Assembly: GCF_000336915.1 (NCBI RefSeq)
Contig: NZ_AOMD01000027.1
Coordinates: 7,206 to 46,488 of the forward strand
Direction: 5' to 3'
Source of the DNA: Halococcus saccharolyticus DSM 5350
GTDB lineage: Archaea; Halobacteriota; Halobacteria; Halobacteriales; Halococcaceae
DNA length: 39,283 nucleotides
Of this stretch, positions 1,759 to 13,196 are shown piece by piece (positions within the stretch are counted from its first letter, which is position 1; the number at the start of each line of letters is the position of its first letter). The translations under genes and the position numbers were made by a program. Under the pieces are notes generated by a model that was not told where the DNA came from, did no database searches, and saw only the letters and a program-made list of their open reading frames with translations.

Positions 1759-3128
1759 AGATACTCGAAATCCTGCGTTCCACCCTCGAAACCGAGCCGT
1801 TCGTGGGCCCACTCGAACGACCCCTCCGCCTGTCGGTCTCGAAGGAAGTCGACGATCGCCTCGCCAACGTTCTCGCCGTAGATGGCTCGTCCACCGGACA
1901 GTTGGCTCCGTACCGAATCGGTTTCGTACACGTGATCGACCAGCTCGTACATCGCTTCGCCACTCGTCGGTGGCACGAGGAGATTCGTCTGGGCGTCGAA
2001 CACTGTCTCCGGGCGGTCGGTGTTGTATCGCGCCGTGAGACAGAACGTTTCGTCGATGTGGTTCAGTTCCTCCTGCATGCTCCCGGAGTCGGTCAGTTCG
2101 GCGAAACACTGGCCCGAGCGGAGGAATTCGTAGACGTGGGCGTGTTTCTTCCAAAGGCCGGTAAAGAGGAAGTTCTCGTGATCATCGGCGAGAGCGAGGA
2201 GACGGTCACGGAGCCCGTAGTTTTCGAGTGCAGTCTGTGTTGCAGTGAGCTCGACAAAATTGACGTTGTAGCCGGCCTCGACGAGATGGATGACACAGTC
2301 GATGATGGCACGGAAACGATCCGGGAGTAGATTTGCCCGTCGGTGGATGTCGACGCGGATCCAGTTATCACGAGCCTCCAGTATCGGGTACACATCGAAC
2401 ACCGACTCGTCGAGATTTGCGGCGGCCTTCATCTCGATCGCGTCGACCACCGAATTGCCGACCACTGGGATACGATCGACACCGTCGACCTCGTCTGGAT
2501 ACCCCTCGCGGACGAGATGCTCGCGATTCAGTTGTGTTGGCGCGAAATGGTAAATAGAGGCCGCGGAGCCGATGAACGTATCATACTGCTCGGGAAACGG
2601 CTCGGTACGGTTGAGCGACCACTCGCCCTTCCACTGGTCGTCGATGAAAGACGCCGGTTCGGCCCGGTTTTCGAACGAGGGCGACATTCCTCGCAGGCCG
2701 GCTTCGTTGTGTGCTACCCGTTGATTCGTCGCGAACATCCACGCTTGTGGGACGATCCCGGCAGCGAGCGTGTCACCGTGAACAAGCGGTAAGACTGTCG
2801 TGTCAGGGTACTGCTCGTCGAGATAGCTGGCAACCGATTCGATCCGCGTCATCAGCTCCGCAGTCTTCTGTGAGAGCCCGCCACGGATTCCAAGGTCGAC
2901 AGCGACGCTGTCATCAATGTCGTACTCGGCGAGACCGTGGCCGAGGAGATCGTCGTGGTGCTGACCGGTGTGCAACACGAAACACGGGAAACCACGACGG
3001 CGCGCGGCCATAACGACTGGGGCTTGCTTGTAGAAGTCAGGTTTGGTCGCGGTCACGACCGCCAACACGAAGTCACTGGCCGTCATCTGTTTGGCGAGTC
3101 GGTCGTCGTAAACCGTGATGTCGTCCAT
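1755..3128 (-). CDS. UDP-N-acetylglucosamine 2-epimerase family protein (WecB-like)
   Basis: This 457-residue protein matches the non-hydrolysing UDP-GlcNAc 2-epimerase family, which interconverts UDP-GlcNAc and UDP-ManNAc. Family signatures appear in the expected order: ATKPDFYKQAPVV in place of the N-terminal GTRPE-IK-APV motif, TGQHHDDLL, LVHGDTLAAG, HNEAGLRG, DIHRRANL in place of the HRREN motif, and TDSGSMQEEL near the sugar-nucleotide site. It is somewhat longer than the usual 370-400 residues, so a side activity within the family is possible. The product would feed cell-surface glycan or S-layer glycosylation, which suits the convergent glycosidase. An A/T-rich TTACTATC-like box lies 25-32 bases before the ATG, fitting a near-leaderless start. 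A copy of its first 15 codons and promoter lies at 13072-13196. Confidence 0.85.
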   Translation of the reverse strand: MDDITVYDDRLAKQMTASDFVLAVVTATKPDFYKQAPVVMAARRRGFPCFVLHTGQHHDDLLGHGLAEYDIDDSVAVDLGIRGGLSQKTAELMTRIESVASYLDEQYPDTTVLPLVHGDTLAAGIVPQAWMFATNQRVAHNEAGLRGMSPSFENRAEPASFIDDQWKGEWSLNRTEPFPEQYDTFIGSAASIYHFAPTQLNREHLVREGYPDEVDGVDRIPVVGNSVVDAIEMKAAANLDESVFDVYPILEARDNWIRVDIHRRANLLPDRFRAIIDCVIHLVEAGYNVNFVELTATQTALENYGLRDRLLALADDHENFLFTGLWKKHAHVYEFLRSGQCFAELTDSGSMQEELNHIDETFCLTARYNTDRPETVFDAQTNLLVPPTSGEAMYELVDHVYETDSVRSQLSGGRAIYGENVGEAIVDFLRDRQAEGSFEWAHERLGFEGGTQDFEYL

Positions 3129-3208
3129 CTCGATTCATATACGCTCACCGTGAGATAGTAAGTGTTGATATGCAGTATCCGATCGTAGTGCTGGCCACGA
3201 AACGCTCG
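3084..3208. repeat. Left copy of a 125-bp direct repeat (epimerase start and promoter)
   Basis: These 125 bases align without gaps to 13072-13196 at a constant offset of 9,988 bases. By hand I count about 22 mismatches, roughly 82 percent identity. Only two mismatches fall in the 45 coding bases (3084-3128); about 20 fall in the 80 upstream bases. The coding differences are one synonymous change at codon 3 and Tyr7 to Cys. Both copies lie in the same orientation, so they bracket about 9.9 kb. Confidence 0.9.
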
Positions 3209-4338
3209 TCTAGTGGAGATCGTCGCGCCGCTTGACCGGTACGCCAAGCTTGATCGGGATGGTTTGCTTGGCCTCCATCATCATACTCGTATGTGGAAAG
3301 AGTTTCATATGATCAGGAGTCACTCAGCCGTCACCGCGAAACTTGTCGGTTGATGGGCTTTCGGGAGGTCGACGCGCTCCTCCCCTCCCGACTCGCACCC
3401 TTACTTTGTTCGGTCACTCCTTGAAGAAGGGGCATCCGCGTTGTTCCGCATAGGTGAACTCCCGACACGCGAGTCACAGTCGTCTTGACTCGGTGAGCGA
3501 CACGCAGAGAGTGGTTCGTGCATTCTCACCCGTTGATAGTCGTTTCACAATCGGATTTTTCGCCCGCAAGGGAGACGATGTACTACTCGTGAATACGAGT
3601 GTGAACCGGATCACCGCTACCGCGCACGCACAAACGACCCAAGGGATAATCACCGAAACCCGCCGTAGAGGGACTGAGAACCGCCTTGAAGCGTTTTTGG
3701 GGATTTATTCAATCGGTTGATAGTATCGTACGAACGAGACAACTCGAACCGGCCAAAAGTTCACACACGGTTTTCGTCGGGCGGTTTTCTCTCAGTGTGA
3801 AGTTTGCAGGTGATATCGCCGATCGTCCAGCGGTTGTGTGCGTTGACTGACCGATAGTAAGTGATGGCTAAACAGGCTTCTAAGAGCGCAAAATGCTCGC
3901 TAACGGACGTTTCGAATTTGGACACATTGTCCGATGGTCCCTTCTGAAGGGGGCATCCAATGCCCGAACCGGTTTTCACACTCGGTTCGATTCACCCGTA
4001 TCAGTGCTTCTTGCGGGGATTGAGGCCGATTGTGAACTCTGGACTAGTCGCTTAGCGGCCAGTAGAGAAACGCTCGAGCCGTGTCAGCTGGTGAATCCGT
4101 GTGTGAACGCGGAGTGCCAAATGTAGTTCCCAAACATCATATTGATTAGTGCTTCCAACCGAACACTAGAGGCCCACAGACGACGTTCGCCTCAAACCCA
4201 TACTTACAGAACTAGTCTGAGCGGCTGACTACACATTGTTATCTATAGGGATCCATCGTAATTTCCAGAGAAGAATCTCCGACAATCGACAATGGTCACA
4301 GTCACCGACAGGGGAACCATGAGAAGTTCACTGGAACT
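3209..4338. other. 1.1-kb gene-poor, decayed interval
   Basis: No convincing gene is present. The stretch is visibly more A+T-rich than its surroundings, mainly after 4130. A frame on the minus strand around 3476-3420 ends in CREFTYAEQRGCPFFKE and stop, but is closed just upstream; it looks like the tail of a lost gene. A second minus-strand frame (3979-3761, 72 residues) and a plus-strand frame (3454-3720, 88 residues) have no recognisable domain. The words GGGGCATCC at about 3430 and GGGGGCATCC at about 3950 recur in similar contexts. I read this as the eroded remains of inserted DNA; which element it came from cannot be told. Confidence 0.5.
3761..3979 (-). pseudogene. Possible remnant of an unrecognised gene
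   Basis: This is a 72-residue open frame with LEACLAITYYRSVNAHNRW and a Lys/Arg-rich tail. Its composition is less acidic and more A+T-rich than the resident genes. The basic, aromatic C-terminal part would suit a fragment of a transposase or phage-type protein, but no catalytic motif is visible and I do not recognise a family. It may not be coding. Confidence 0.2.
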
Positions 4339-7300
4339 CTATAGTATCTCACGAAGGAATTCGACAGGATAGATGGCAGTCAGGCCGGGTGTCTCGATGC
4401 GAAACTGCTGGGGCGGCGTGTTCTTGCTGTAGGCCTTTTCGATCCGCGGCTCGCCATCGAGTGGATCGTTGAGTACGTCGAGCACGTCATGGCCACCATC
4501 ACGCGTCATGACGACCCAAATCGCTTCTTCAGGATCACACGCAGCCATCTTATCGAAGTCATCGGGGACGGCCGTGTGGATATCGTGATTGATGCGCTCC
4601 GCCTCGACCGTGACGACGATCTCGTCGTTTGCATCGAGACCCGCGAGGTCGAGGCGGCGCTGGTCGTCGACATCGTAGTAGGGGAAAACCTCGACGACGG
4701 TCGATTCGGGATCACGCACGTATTTGGCCTCGAGATACTGCCGGGCAACCTCGACGGCGAAGACATGCTGGCTCGACTCTTCGAGGTCGCCCTGTCCGTG
4801 ACCGTAGTCGACACCCTGGCGGTAGCTCTCTCCGAGTACTTTTCGTCCGGCCACCGTCACGGTGAACAGCCGATGAGGGTGGTCGGTGTCGTGACGCAGG
4901 AGATCGGCATCGAGAAGACCCTCGATCGCCTCGCTCTCGATACCGACGTACTCCTGGAGACGAAGCATACTGTCCCACAGCAGATCGTACTCCAGTTCAG
5001 GGTCATACCGGAGTTGCTGGGCGTTGTACACCACCTGGAGGAAGCAGAGCTGTCGGTCGGACCACTCCGAAGCGCTCCGTTCCTCGGGGGTGAGTTTGAG
5101 GTTGATATCACAGATCGGCACATCGTGACGGCCGACAGCGCTGAGGTCGTGACAGCAGTCGATAGCTCGTTTCATCCCATCGGCACTCGGATCGTATCGG
5201 TTGTCACAGTCGACACACCGGAGGGCGTGAATCGTGGGATCGTATTCGACACACGCGGGCAGGCGCTTCGTGAGTGGGAGCGCGGTGTCTACGCGCGCCA
5301 GTTGGACGTCAGCGGTTTCGTCCGTCGGCTCCGGTTCGACTCCGTCAACCGCTCCAGCTCCAGCCGGAGCAGCAGCGCGTGGTGGTTCGAACGACAGACC
5401 GTATGCCGACCGCGTCCATGCTTGCATGTCGATCCGCGCGTCCTCGAACGCCCATCGCTCCTGATTGGCAAGCGGCTGCTCGCTGGCCGGGTGTCCGGAC
5501 GGAGGTGGGGCGGAACCAACGAGGAACGGTCGTGGTTCAGGCTCGTCGAAGGCAGCCGGGAGCCGCACCAACCACTGGCCGCGTCGCAGCGCTCGTAGCC
5601 GATTGCCAACCGCATCCGGATCCATGTCGTCGGTGGCTAGACGTCGCGCGAGTCGCCGGTCGACCGGAACGTTTCCCGTGACGAACGTCGAGATGTTGTT
5701 GAGGAGTTCGTCGTACGCACGCTCGTCGGCCTGGCGGAGTTGAGCCGGAAACTGCATCGACAGCGTGATCGAACAATCGAAGCCGCGGGACTGGGCAAGT
5801 AAGTCACCGAGGAGATCGGAGACGGCGACGCTCGCCGCCTCTTCAAGGTAGAGGTTCACCAGCGGATGGTCAGCGTCAGCGGAGGCACGTCGGCTACGCC
5901 GCCTAAGGGCGGTCCAGAGGTTCGAGAGCACCACCAGCGTCAGGACGCGCTGGGCTTCCGACCGGAGTTCGCCCATATCGAGGATGACGACGACGTCCTC
6001 GTCGAGCAGCGCCGCGAGATCGAAAACCGGATCACCACCCCCTGAATCCGGATCCGAGGTCGGGTTCACGTTCGAGTCCGGATCCCGATCCCGATCCTGA
6101 TTCGGGTCTAGGTCCAGCTCCGAGATCGAATCGGAATGTGGGTGCGAATGCGAGTTCGAGTCCGGTACGTGGTTGAAGACGCTGGCAAGGCGGCCGTCGA
6201 CGGGGATCTTCTCAAGACGATTAGCGACCCCCTGCATGATCTCGTCGAACGAGCGCTGGTGGTTTGCAACGACGCCACCCAGCATCCGTTCGAGGTCGGG
6301 ATCGCTCACTGCCGGCACGGTCTGGCGTTCGTGCATCCGGCGAGCGGATTCGTGGAGTTGGCGGTGTGAAAACGCATCGCTCCCATGAACAGGATCGAAC
6401 TGTGCCTTGAGGAGGTATCGAATCACGTCCGGCGACCGCACCGCCTGCTCGAAGCGTTCCCGGCCCATGATCTGCATGAGGATCTCGATGTAGTGATCGA
6501 TGACGTCCTCGACGGCGGTCGTTCGAGGGACGCCCGCAGCGAGTTCGTCACGGATATCGAAAAACGAGAACGCGGGGAGGACGCTTCCACAGTCGAAATA
6601 GTACACGTCATCCAGCGACTCGAAGCGAGCGTAGTGCGAGCGGAGATACTCGATCGCCATCCCATCGCCCTTGGGATCGATCAAGAGGTCCGCACCCGAT
6701 GTGGCAGCGTGATTGTCGAGGATCGCCGTGATCACGCTCGTGGATTTTCCCGATCCGGTCTTGCCGAACCATCCCACATGTAAGCGTTGGAGCGACGGGG
6801 GCAGCACGACCAGTTCGTCCGTGGTCACGTCGTCGTGCGTCCGAGCGTCGCCAAGGGTGAGCCCCACACCGCGATACGCGTCAAGCTGTTCGTCAGGCGG
6901 GCGTGGCAGGGCGGTTCGCTCGCCGGGCGTCGCGGCGACCGCCCGCGTGCCGGTCGCGGTCAGTGCCGGCCCACCGAGCACACAGAAGTTCGGTGCTTCC
7001 CGGACGTCGGCCACGATCCCCTGGCTCGTATTCGCCTTCCAAGGAAGGTGTGTCCCGAGGCGTTCGTAATCCGGTGGGTGAAACGTTCGCTCGCTGATCG
7101 CCCGGAACACACGATGGCCGGGTGGGAGGGTTCCCGCATGGAGGTCCTCGTCGGTCCGCACCATGCCGTCGAGTTCGTAGGTAGTGCGTCCGACGGCGCT
7201 GAACACCGTGGCGAGGTCTTCAGCCGCACGCGTGGCGGCATCAGGATTCTCGGGAGTCAGCGCGGCCGCACGGACGTTGAGATCGAACGATCGACGGGTT

Positions 7301-8238
7301 TGCTTCGCATCGAGTTCGTCGAGCCGCGTGCGTTCGCTTCGAATGGGGGTTGTTTCGTCGGGTGCGTGTGCTGTGTGATCCGTGTGTTCGTCGGCGGCCT
7401 GTGGAACGATCGCCTCCAGCAGCGCGTCGCCGATACGCGCCCCACGGGTGTCGTGACCCTGTTCCAACCGATGGTGGCGAACCGTGGCGGCGGCGGTCCA
7501 GTCGGGTTTGGGTCGCATGAGCACCTGATAGACCATCGCGACGGACGTGTCGGCCATCGTCTCGACGACTGCCGTGAGAGGGACGTGATCCCCGCTAGTA
7601 GAGTGAAACCGGTTAAAGGGTGTCAGCTGTGTCTGCCAGTCGTTGCGACGCTCAGCGACACCGTGATACTCGACACCGGCAACGAAGCATTCCTCGTCGG
7701 CTGTCGCCGTTATATCGACTGCGCCTGTCCCATCAGTGAACCCGCCCGTGCCAGCTAGCCCTCGCTCGCCGCCCGCTCTCACTTCGGAGGTCGCTTTCGC
7801 CTCGCCGAACGGCTGCTCGTCCGCAGGCTCTCGGTGCTCGTCCGCAAGCTCCCGCACCGCGGGGCCACAAGCGCATGTGAGGTCAAGCGTCGTCCGATCG
7901 AATTCGTAGGTGTCGGGAAAGAGACTCCGCAGCGCGCGTTCGAGCCCGTCGGGATCGTGCTCGGTATCGAGCCCGAAGTAGTACTCGATCGTGGGGACGT
8001 CGGCGGGCGAAATGAGGAGGCACTCGATCGTCGGTGGGGTTGGCGACCTCCCAGTGAGGTGCTGCACCCACGAGCCCGTGGTCTGCGTCGATCCCATTCG
8101 ATGCAGGCGTTCGAATGGACTCTGGATCGACTCGGTCGATAGTGGATCGTCGCTCGGTCGAACGGCGATGTACGATCGGGACCCGGGTCGATCGCCGTCA
8201 TGCCCACCGTCTGCGGGTTCGTCTTCGGCTCCCGCCAT
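4339..8238 (-). CDS. Large HerA/VirD4-type P-loop ATPase with zinc-finger and nuclease-like C-terminal regions
   Basis: The product has 1,299 residues if started at the ATG at 8238. That start is preferred over one at 8382 because a CTAAAG box lies 25-30 bases upstream, fitting a leaderless haloarchaeal transcript. The N-terminal half has no named domain. Walker A is GKTGSGKS at 492-499, followed by LLIDPKGDG, as in the DNA-pumping ATPases of the HerA/TraD/VirD4 group. Walker B is VVVILDMGE around Asp754, then LYLEEAASV and SMQFPAQLRQ, which resemble the sensor motifs of that group. A 45-residue Asp/Ser/Asn/Pro linker sits at about 692-736. CVDC and a later CCH near 1006-1030 look like a zinc finger. 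Near the C-terminus Asp1197, Glu1212 and Glu1214 are spaced as in PD-(D/E)XK nucleases. The protein probably translocates or processes DNA, in conjugation, mobility or defence. No relaxase, integrase or pilus gene is visible nearby. Confidence 0.8.
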   Translation of the reverse strand: MAGAEDEPADGGHDGDRPGSRSYIAVRPSDDPLSTESIQSPFERLHRMGSTQTTGSWVQHLTGRSPTPPTIECLLISPADVPTIEYYFGLDTEHDPDGLERALRSLFPDTYEFDRTTLDLTCACGPAVRELADEHREPADEQPFGEAKATSEVRAGGERGLAGTGGFTDGTGAVDITATADEECFVAGVEYHGVAERRNDWQTQLTPFNRFHSTSGDHVPLTAVVETMADTSVAMVYQVLMRPKPDWTAAATVRHHRLEQGHDTRGARIGDALLEAIVPQAADEHTDHTAHAPDETTPIRSERTRLDELDAKQTRRSFDLNVRAAALTPENPDAATRAAEDLATVFSAVGRTTYELDGMVRTDEDLHAGTLPPGHRVFRAISERTFHPPDYERLGTHLPWKANTSQGIVADVREAPNFCVLGGPALTATGTRAVAATPGERTALPRPPDEQLDAYRGVGLTLGDARTHDDVTTDELVVLPPSLQRLHVGWFGKTGSGKSTSVITAILDNHAATSGADLLIDPKGDGMAIEYLRSHYARFESLDDVYYFDCGSVLPAFSFFDIRDELAAGVPRTTAVEDVIDHYIEILMQIMGRERFEQAVRSPDVIRYLLKAQFDPVHGSDAFSHRQLHESARRMHERQTVPAVSDPDLERMLGGVVANHQRSFDEIMQGVANRLEKIPVDGRLASVFNHVPDSNSHSHPHSDSISELDLDPNQDRDRDPDSNVNPTSDPDSGGGDPVFDLAALLDEDVVVILDMGELRSEAQRVLTLVVLSNLWTALRRRSRRASADADHPLVNLYLEEAASVAVSDLLGDLLAQSRGFDCSITLSMQFPAQLRQADERAYDELLNNISTFVTGNVPVDRRLARRLATDDMDPDAVGNRLRALRRGQWLVRLPAAFDEPEPRPFLVGSAPPPSGHPASEQPLANQERWAFEDARIDMQAWTRSAYGLSFEPPRAAAPAGAGAVDGVEPEPTDETADVQLARVDTALPLTKRLPACVEYDPTIHALRCVDCDNRYDPSADGMKRAIDCCHDLSAVGRHDVPICDINLKLTPEERSASEWSDRQLCFLQVVYNAQQLRYDPELEYDLLWDSMLRLQEYVGIESEAIEGLLDADLLRHDTDHPHRLFTVTVAGRKVLGESYRQGVDYGHGQGDLEESSQHVFAVEVARQYLEAKYVRDPESTVVEVFPYYDVDDQRRLDLAGLDANDEIVVTVEAERINHDIHTAVPDDFDKMAACDPEEAIWVVMTRDGGHDVLDVLNDPLDGEPRIEKAYSKNTPPQQFRIETPGLTAIYPVEFLREIL
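6031..6163 (-). repeat. Low-complexity Asp/Ser/Pro linker in the ATPase
   Basis: The DNA is an imperfect run of GATCCG/GATTCG-type hexamers that encodes a hydrophilic tract dominated by Asp, Ser, Asn, Pro and early His. It lies between Walker A and Walker B, next to VFNHVP and before the Walker B strand. Such tracts expand and contract by slippage, so length variation between strains is plausible. Confidence 0.75.
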
Positions 8239-8268: not shown

Positions 8269-8448
8269 TCTTCTTACAACACCCCTGGGTCCCCCAGTGA
8301 GGATGGAGCCTCGGGAGATGTGCCTCTGGATTCCCAAGCGGAACGTTCTGGCAAACCGACCGCGATCAGATGCACCCGACAACGGCCCAACGGTTTTCTC
8401 GATCGGGGGTTTCGAGGTGGGTATGCGACGTCATCAGTGGGGTGGTCG

Positions 8449-13071: not shown

Positions 13072-13116
13072 CATCTGTTTGGCGAGTCGGTCGTCGCAAA
13101 CCGTGATATCGTCCAT
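13072..13116 (-). pseudogene. Truncated copy of the epimerase gene (first 15 codons)
   Basis: Read from ATG 13116 on the minus strand, the frame gives MDDITVCDDRLAKQM, identical to the epimerase start at 3128 apart from Tyr7 to Cys. After codon 15 all similarity stops. The bases upstream (13117-13196) carry the matching promoter region at lower identity. It is either the 5' stub of a destroyed paralogue or a duplicated boundary left by insertion of the DNA between the two copies. Confidence 0.8.
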
Positions 13117-13196
13117 CTTGGTTCAGGTGCGCTCGCCGTGAGATGGTGAGTGTTGATATGGGATATCCGACCATGATATCAGCCACAAAACGCTCG
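13072..13196. repeat. Right copy of the 125-bp direct repeat
   Basis: It pairs without gaps with 3084-3208. The TATA-like segment differs from the left copy: AGATAGTAAG has become AGATGGTGAG on the plus strand, which weakens the A/T box and suggests this promoter is no longer kept. Confidence 0.88.

What the first reader, a model, noticed from the sequence alone, without database searches (positions are those of the whole stretch)
4339..8238. Orphan HerA/VirD4-like ATPase with zinc finger and nuclease-like tail
Seen: Walker A at 492-499, Walker B near Asp754, Cys pairs near 1006-1030, and an Asp1197...Glu1212-x-Glu1214 arrangement like the PD-(D/E)XK active site. Known: HerA-type ATPases pump DNA in conjugation and end resection and often pair with nucleases (HerA-NurA), including in anti-phage systems such as HerA-DUF4297/Sir2. 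Here motor and putative nuclease would be in one chain, without a relaxase, integrase or pilus gene nearby. A one-gene DNA-processing or defence system is possible.
Basis: partly seen in the sequence, partly recalled or inferred. Interest (0 to 1): 0.65.

Follow-up and report, generated by a model that had tools for sequence, protein, structure and literature searches.

The report
Archaeal conjugation motor with nuclease tail
This gene encodes the DNA pump (coupling protein) of a widespread salt-loving-archaeal gene-transfer element; in this genome it sits stranded without its partner genes, and it carries a built-in nuclease-like tail that could be the DNA-cutting enzyme (relaxase) nobody has yet found in archaeal conjugation.

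Summary
In detail: window 4339-8238 (-) encodes 1299 aa with an FtsK/HerA/VirD4-type motor and a tail that AlphaFold2 models confidently (pLDDT 93.6) as a Cys knuckle, a winged helix and a PD-(D/E)XK core with D1197 and E1212-x-E1214 in the expected strands. The reading 'orphan one-gene system' is not supported by the family. Distant members (24/24) sit directly behind VirB4 on haloarchaeal plasmids. Close members look solo, but in 44 of 47 genomes VirB4 lies on the same contig (22 of 27 large contigs within 60 kb; 1.3 expected), and all 20 such VirB4 operons read lack their own VirD4. VirB4 and the solo protein co-diverge (Mantel r 0.70). So the gene is a relocated VirD4 coupling protein of integrated conjugative elements. 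In its own genome (a Halococcus, inferred) the partner genes are gone, yet dN/dS against a sister copy is 0.16. The tail has the domain order of MOBC relaxases (winged helix, H, D, ExE, K), and a second haloarchaeal VirD4 family ends similarly; profile comparison did not prove homology. Archaeal conjugation has no known relaxase, so a coupling protein-nuclease fusion is a testable candidate.

The parts
4339..8238 (-). whole gene, 1299 aa VirD4-like coupling protein with nuclease-like tail
6919..8181 (-). N-terminal alpha/beta region (residues 20-440), no transmembrane helix
   Evidence: AF2; hydropathy
5449..6921 (-). RecA-like FtsK/HerA/VirD4-type motor with helical insertion (residues 440-930)
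6742..6765 (-). Walker A GKTGSGKS, residues 492-499
   Evidence: invariant in 73 homologues
5977..5979 (-).
5836..5859 (-). more likely Walker B: segment with E799/E800 (residues 794-801)
   Evidence: assignment by analogy, inferred
6034..6171 (-). low-complexity acidic insertion, residues 690-735, absent in most relatives
   Evidence: low pLDDT
5110..5217 (-). Cys knuckle C1008, C1011, C1028, (C1029, C1043); only in the split branch
4828..5091 (-). winged helix, residues 1050-1137
   Evidence: MarR-type, Z 7-8
4468..4779 (-). PD-(D/E)XK core, residues 1154-1257
4648..4650 (-). D1197, on strand beta2
4597..4605 (-). E1212-A-E1214, end of strand beta3
4549..4551 (-). K1230, in the following helix (71/73)

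Best explanation
The protein is the VirD4-type coupling protein of a class of haloarchaeal integrative conjugative elements in which the virD4 gene has been moved away from the virB4 operon. Its motor would take transfer DNA to, and pump it into, a minimal VirB4/VirB6-type channel. Its C-terminal winged helix plus PD-(D/E)XK domain would bind and cut the element's DNA (probably nick it at an origin of transfer), so that recognition, cutting and pumping are in one chain. Shown: family membership, linkage and complementarity with VirB4, co-divergence, predicted fold, conservation of the active-site residues. Inferred: that it couples DNA to the channel; that the tail is catalytically active; that it nicks at oriT. 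In the window's own genome the rest of the element is missing, so this copy is a stranded coupling protein, still under purifying selection, that may serve elements passing through the cell. Likelihoods: coupling protein 0.88; PD-(D/E)XK fold 0.85; active nuclease in transfer 0.5; transfer-initiating nickase 0.3.
For: Distant branch: all 24 loci lie immediately behind VirB4, in an operon that also holds TrbL/VirB6-like (PF19590) and primase-like genes. Close branch: VirB4 on the same contig in 44/47 genomes, median 26 kb; 22/27 large contigs within 60 kb against 1.26 expected. In 20/20 such elements the VirB4 operon has no VirD4 of its own. VirB4 and solo-protein distances correlate, r 0.70, 0/5000 permutations; VirB4s of some split elements nest among canonical ones, so one VirD4 type replaced the other. 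Full-length homology of both branches, 30-33% identity. Motor fold: TrwB Z 24, VirB4 Z 26, HerA Z 24. Tail: pLDDT 93.6, alpha-beta-beta-beta-alpha-beta with D and ExE in the canonical strands; PD-(D/E)XK structures at Z about 7. D/E/E invariant in 73/73 across both branches. dN/dS 0.16 overall, 0.065 motor, 0.11 tail against the G323 copy. A divergent second haloarchaeal VirD4 family (own genome, C29) also ends in winged helix-H-PD-ExE-K, conserved in 22 sequences. None of the 144 plasmids with a homologue is typed as mobilizable; no Rep-Arvir (DUF7845) gene within 60 kb of 20 split elements; PF03432 relaxase in 1 of 21 genomes, on another contig.
Against: In the window's genome no VirB4 of this kind exists; the only relative is a divergent one on another contig that has its own VirD4. 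The motor fold scores tie between DndH, VirB4, TrwB and HerA, so fold alone does not say coupling protein. No transmembrane helix. Profile comparison with MOBC relaxase TraX is not significant and PF13814 does not match (haloarchaeal PF13814 hits are sub-threshold). Absence of other relaxases was tested for only a few families. No biochemical data.
Confidence: 0.6

Rival explanations
1. Coupling protein, but the tail is not a nickase at oriT: motor and nuclease act like HerA-NurA in one chain, resecting double-stranded DNA to make single strands for transfer, or the tail cuts competing or incoming DNA.
For: A HerA-NurA-like route to ssDNA has been proposed for archaeal DNA exchange (PMC9905601). 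PD-(D/E)XK is also the fold class of many exonucleases, and the best structural matches include CRISPR ancillary nucleases and repair enzymes.
Against: The winged helix directly before the nuclease suggests sequence-specific binding, as in MOBC relaxases; nothing here tests polarity or specificity.
Confidence: 0.3
2. A one-gene or element-borne anti-phage system of the HerA-nuclease type.
For: PADLOC mad8 profile E 3e-6 and weak HerA hits on the motor; DndH C-domain is the top structural match by a small margin, and HerA-DUF4297/Sir2 complexes score Z 20-22.
Against: Best-conserved context is VirB4, with complementarity and co-divergence; no recurrent defence genes; the same tail is present in the branch inside conjugation operons.
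Confidence: 0.06
3. In this genome the gene is a decaying remnant without function.
For: All partner genes are absent from its 100-kb contig, and only a divergent VirB4 exists in the genome. A sister genome holds a truncated 719-aa relative. Chromosomal synteny breaks at window position about 8350-8380.
Against: Full-length open frame, all active-site residues intact, dN/dS 0.16 against the 95%-identical copy in a sister species.
Confidence: 0.25

Closest known systems
VirD4/TraG/TrwB-type T4SS coupling proteins
   Same: FtsK/HerA-superfamily motor; weak PF10412/PF12696 and NF045973 matches; TrwB Z 24 over 375 residues; tied to VirB4
   Different: no transmembrane domain, large N-terminal region, C-terminal zinc knuckle, winged helix and PD-(D/E)XK domain; gene moved away from virB4
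MOBC relaxases (TraX of pAD1, PF13814 Replic_Relax)
   Same: winged helix then a PD-(D/E)XK-type domain; same order H, D, ExE, K, with 16 residues from the second E to K in both
   Different: no significant sequence or profile match; here fused to the coupling motor, whereas TraX is a separate protein next to its coupling protein
Haloarchaeal integrated elements with VirB4 and TraG/VirD4 (fusexin IMEs, PMC9259645)
   Same: same kind of element with VirB4 and VirD4-like genes
   Different: the passages read here do not describe a nuclease tail or the split arrangement
HerA-NurA and HerA-DUF4297/Sir2
   Same: motor fold and motor-plus-nuclease logic
   Different: separate genes, repair or defence context; here one chain and conjugation context

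Membership tests
VirD4-type T4SS coupling protein | RecA-like motor with Walker A/B of the FtsK-HerA superfamily | tested here: met
VirD4-type T4SS coupling protein | encoded on the same element as VirB4 | tested here: met
   met for the family; not met for the copy in the window's own genome
VirD4-type T4SS coupling protein | only VirD4 of its element | tested here: met
   0 of 20 VirB4 regions of split-type elements hold another VirD4 homologue
VirD4-type T4SS coupling protein | all-alpha domain in the motor | tested here: inconclusive
   model shows a helical insertion between Walker A and B; TrwB aligns over 375 residues but HerA scores tie
VirD4-type T4SS coupling protein | N-terminal transmembrane domain (not universal; a TM-less class is listed in PMC7431656) | tested here: not met
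   no hydrophobic segment, best 19-residue mean 1.4 inside the motor
VirD4-type T4SS coupling protein | required for DNA transfer | not testable with these tools
   needs conjugation assays
PD-(D/E)XK nuclease superfamily | alpha-beta-beta-beta-alpha-beta core with D on beta2 and (D/E)xK/E on beta3 | tested here: met
   AF2 pLDDT 93.6; PD-(D/E)XK structures among best matches at Z about 7, not significant alone
PD-(D/E)XK nuclease superfamily | nuclease activity | not testable with these tools
   needs biochemistry
MOBC relaxase (PF13814) | sequence or profile match to the family | tested here: not met
   no PF13814 match; hhalign to TraX family probability 2-6%, winged helix only
MOBC relaxase (PF13814) | winged helix plus PD-(D/E)XK with D, ExE, K | tested here: met
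   (motif order, not proof of descent)
HerA-nuclease defence system | recurrent defence context or paired nuclease gene | tested here: not met

The most novel reading that the evidence does not exclude
Haloarchaeal conjugative elements carry their relaxase fused to the coupling protein: a winged helix plus PD-(D/E)XK tail on VirD4 nicks the origin of transfer and hands the strand straight to its own motor. Two divergent VirD4 families have such tails, which would explain why no relaxase has been found in archaeal conjugation.
Probability: 0.3. Interest if true: 0.9.

Novelty: new variant of a known kind. Interest (0 to 1): 0.66.

Why it matters
Reviews state that no relaxase is known for archaeal conjugative elements (PMC12857230, PMC9905601; already noted in PMC3158045). 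A coupling protein with a conserved nuclease tail, present in most of the Halobacteria sampled (252 of 391 genomes hold a homologue), names a candidate gene and exact residues to mutate. It also means that haloarchaeal ICEs are easily missed or mis-scored, because virD4 is not next to virB4.

Tried and rejected
Defence reading: rejected on context. Phage origin: no match in 50,697 phage records. Direct homology to MOBC/TraX: hhalign on whole tail, nuclease only, and against a second VirD4 family all non-significant; not claimed. PDB sequence search with the tail profile: nothing. PHROGs: nothing. Viral structure library: only weak hits, among them several PD-(D/E)XK or restriction enzymes. The 800-bp iterated non-coding element downstream as an oriT of the family: not found at other loci. 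Common repeats upstream of the OB-fold neighbour as oriT: no shared motif seen. Rep-Arvir as the element's relaxase: none within 60 kb.

Full report
What is there. The minus-strand gene at 4339-8238 encodes 1299 residues. The window is part of contig C27 (100 kb) of a 3.45-Mb haloarchaeal draft genome; the genus is probably Halococcus, because a same-genus genome, G235, has a 5098-base contig matching the Halococcus thailandensis contig (inference). Walker A 492-499, D1197, E1212 and E1214 are invariant in 73 full-length homologues, and K1230 in 71. E799/E800 fits Walker B better than D754. The Cys knuckle is universal in the close branch (49/49) and absent from the other (0/24).

Family. A homologue occurs in 252 of 391 sampled Halobacteria genomes and on 144 plasmids, none in phages. 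It has two branches with full-length similarity. The distant one (30-33% identity) is the protein encoded directly behind VirB4 on plasmids such as pNRC200 and pSTJ002. A scan of one genome per species gave 80 named loci. In 24 of 24 distant-branch loci VirB4 lies 2-3.4 kb upstream on the same strand (centre to centre), in an operon that also holds a TrbL/VirB6-like protein (PF19590) and a primase-like protein. In the close branch only 4 of 56 have VirB4 within about 12 kb.

The 'solo' genes are not solo. A VirB4 profile was searched in 54 genomes holding close-branch genes. For 47 genomes whose positions could be paired, VirB4 is on the same contig in 44, median distance 26 kb. On the 27 contigs larger than 1 Mb, 22 lie within 60 kb, where random placement would give 1.26 (coordinates entered by hand, and for G349 a second gene copy was used). 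I read 14-15 kb around VirB4 in 20 of these elements: none has a VirD4 homologue beside VirB4. In the Halarchaeum plasmid the solo gene is 12 kb from a VirB4 operon that likewise lacks VirD4. VirB4 and solo-protein distances correlate across 21 elements (r 0.70, 0 of 5000 permutations). Some split-type VirB4 proteins nest among canonical ones, although their VirD4 proteins are only 30% identical, which looks like replacement of one VirD4 type by the other on a common VirB4 base. The simplest reading is that the gene is the element's coupling protein, moved to another place.

This copy. In the window's genome no other transfer gene of this type was found on the contig. The only VirB4 relative is a divergent one on C29 that is followed by its own VirD4-like protein. 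The gene lies between glycan and metabolic genes. A relative keeps the right-hand genes from window position 8382 on, without the ATPase. The sister copy (95% identical protein) gives dN/dS 0.16, motor 0.065, tail 0.11. So it is an orphan here, but not obviously dead; selection may in part predate its isolation.

Structure. Residues 985-1299 fold with pLDDT 93.6 into a small Cys-containing beta element, a MarR-like winged helix and a helix followed by three strands, a helix, a strand and a helix. D1197 is on the second strand, E1212-x-E1214 at the end of the third, K1230 in the next helix, H1158 in the first helix. Structural matches are MarR-type regulators (Z 7-8) and PD-(D/E)XK proteins at Z about 7: Can2-type nucleases 1xmx and 8bao, EcoT38I, PaqCI, AF1548 and 3dnx (their family labels beyond the printed titles are from my own knowledge). 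Such Z values alone would not be proof; topology plus invariant residues make the case. Residues 20-960 (pLDDT 85) contain the motor; VirB4 (Z 26), DndH (27), TrwB (24) and HerA (24) tie, so context decides.

What the tail may do. MOBC relaxases (TraX of pAD1) are PD-(D/E)XK-type relaxases, and no covalent intermediate was seen (PMC12857230). A TraX-like protein of pTEF1 has the same order: winged helix, H, D152, E170-x-E172, and K188 sixteen residues on, as here E1214 to K1230. Profile comparisons were not significant, so membership is not claimed. A second VirD4 family (own genome, C29, about 22 sequences) also ends in a winged-helix-like stretch, H, PD, IEAE and NLxKA. None of the 144 plasmids is typed as mobilizable, no Rep-Arvir gene lies near 20 split elements, and a PF03432 relaxase was found in 1 of 21 genomes, on a different contig. 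Reviews state that archaeal conjugative elements have no known relaxase. A coupling protein that carries the nicking domain is therefore a specific, testable candidate; I put it at 0.3.

Verdict. Observation confirmed; the defence or one-gene reading is unlikely; the thing is a coupling protein of split-type haloarchaeal conjugative elements with an uncharacterised nuclease-like tail. I found no paper in the held library describing this architecture, but most subscription journals are not held.

Noticed in passing
window 3440-4250: About 800-bp non-coding element with some seven copies of a TGTGAAC-type motif in both orientations at conserved spacings, arranged as a large imperfect palindrome centred near 3790; 82% identical to G000:C1:10790-11584 and 75% to a copy 4.3 kb from a truncated homologue in G323. 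Possible origin or regulatory region.
   Followed up: partly
G000 contig C29, L069:1222-9158: A second T4SS-like pair in the same genome: VirB4-like 1217 aa and VirD4-like 1428 aa; the latter family has its own conserved winged helix-H-PD-ExE-K tail.
   Followed up: partly
window 3084-3208 and 13072-13196: 125-bp direct repeat, 82% identical, the first copy covering the start of a UDP-GlcNAc 2-epimerase gene; the two copies bracket about 10 kb that contain the ATPase gene.
   Followed up: no
L045:7658-9817 (G323 contig C2): Truncated 719-aa homologue of the ATPase (motor part and tail) just behind a gene with a weak RNA ligase match.
   Followed up: no
split-type loci, e.g. L076, L078, L084: An OB-fold protein of about 290 aa (PF21473/PF01336, weak) is divergent to and 3-10 kb upstream of the solo gene in 24 of 55 loci, often with a 0.4-1.9 kb non-coding gap; also found in canonical elements.
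   Followed up: partly
L055, L086, L100, L114: In several split-type elements the solo gene is followed by GlmS/GlmU-like sugar-nucleotide genes (labels from sequence starts; inference), perhaps an edge of the element.
   Followed up: no
split-type VirB4 operons, e.g. L184:12280-12738: The small first gene of the operon has a weak TrbC/VirB2 pilin match (E 0.014), a candidate archaeal conjugative pilin.
   Followed up: no
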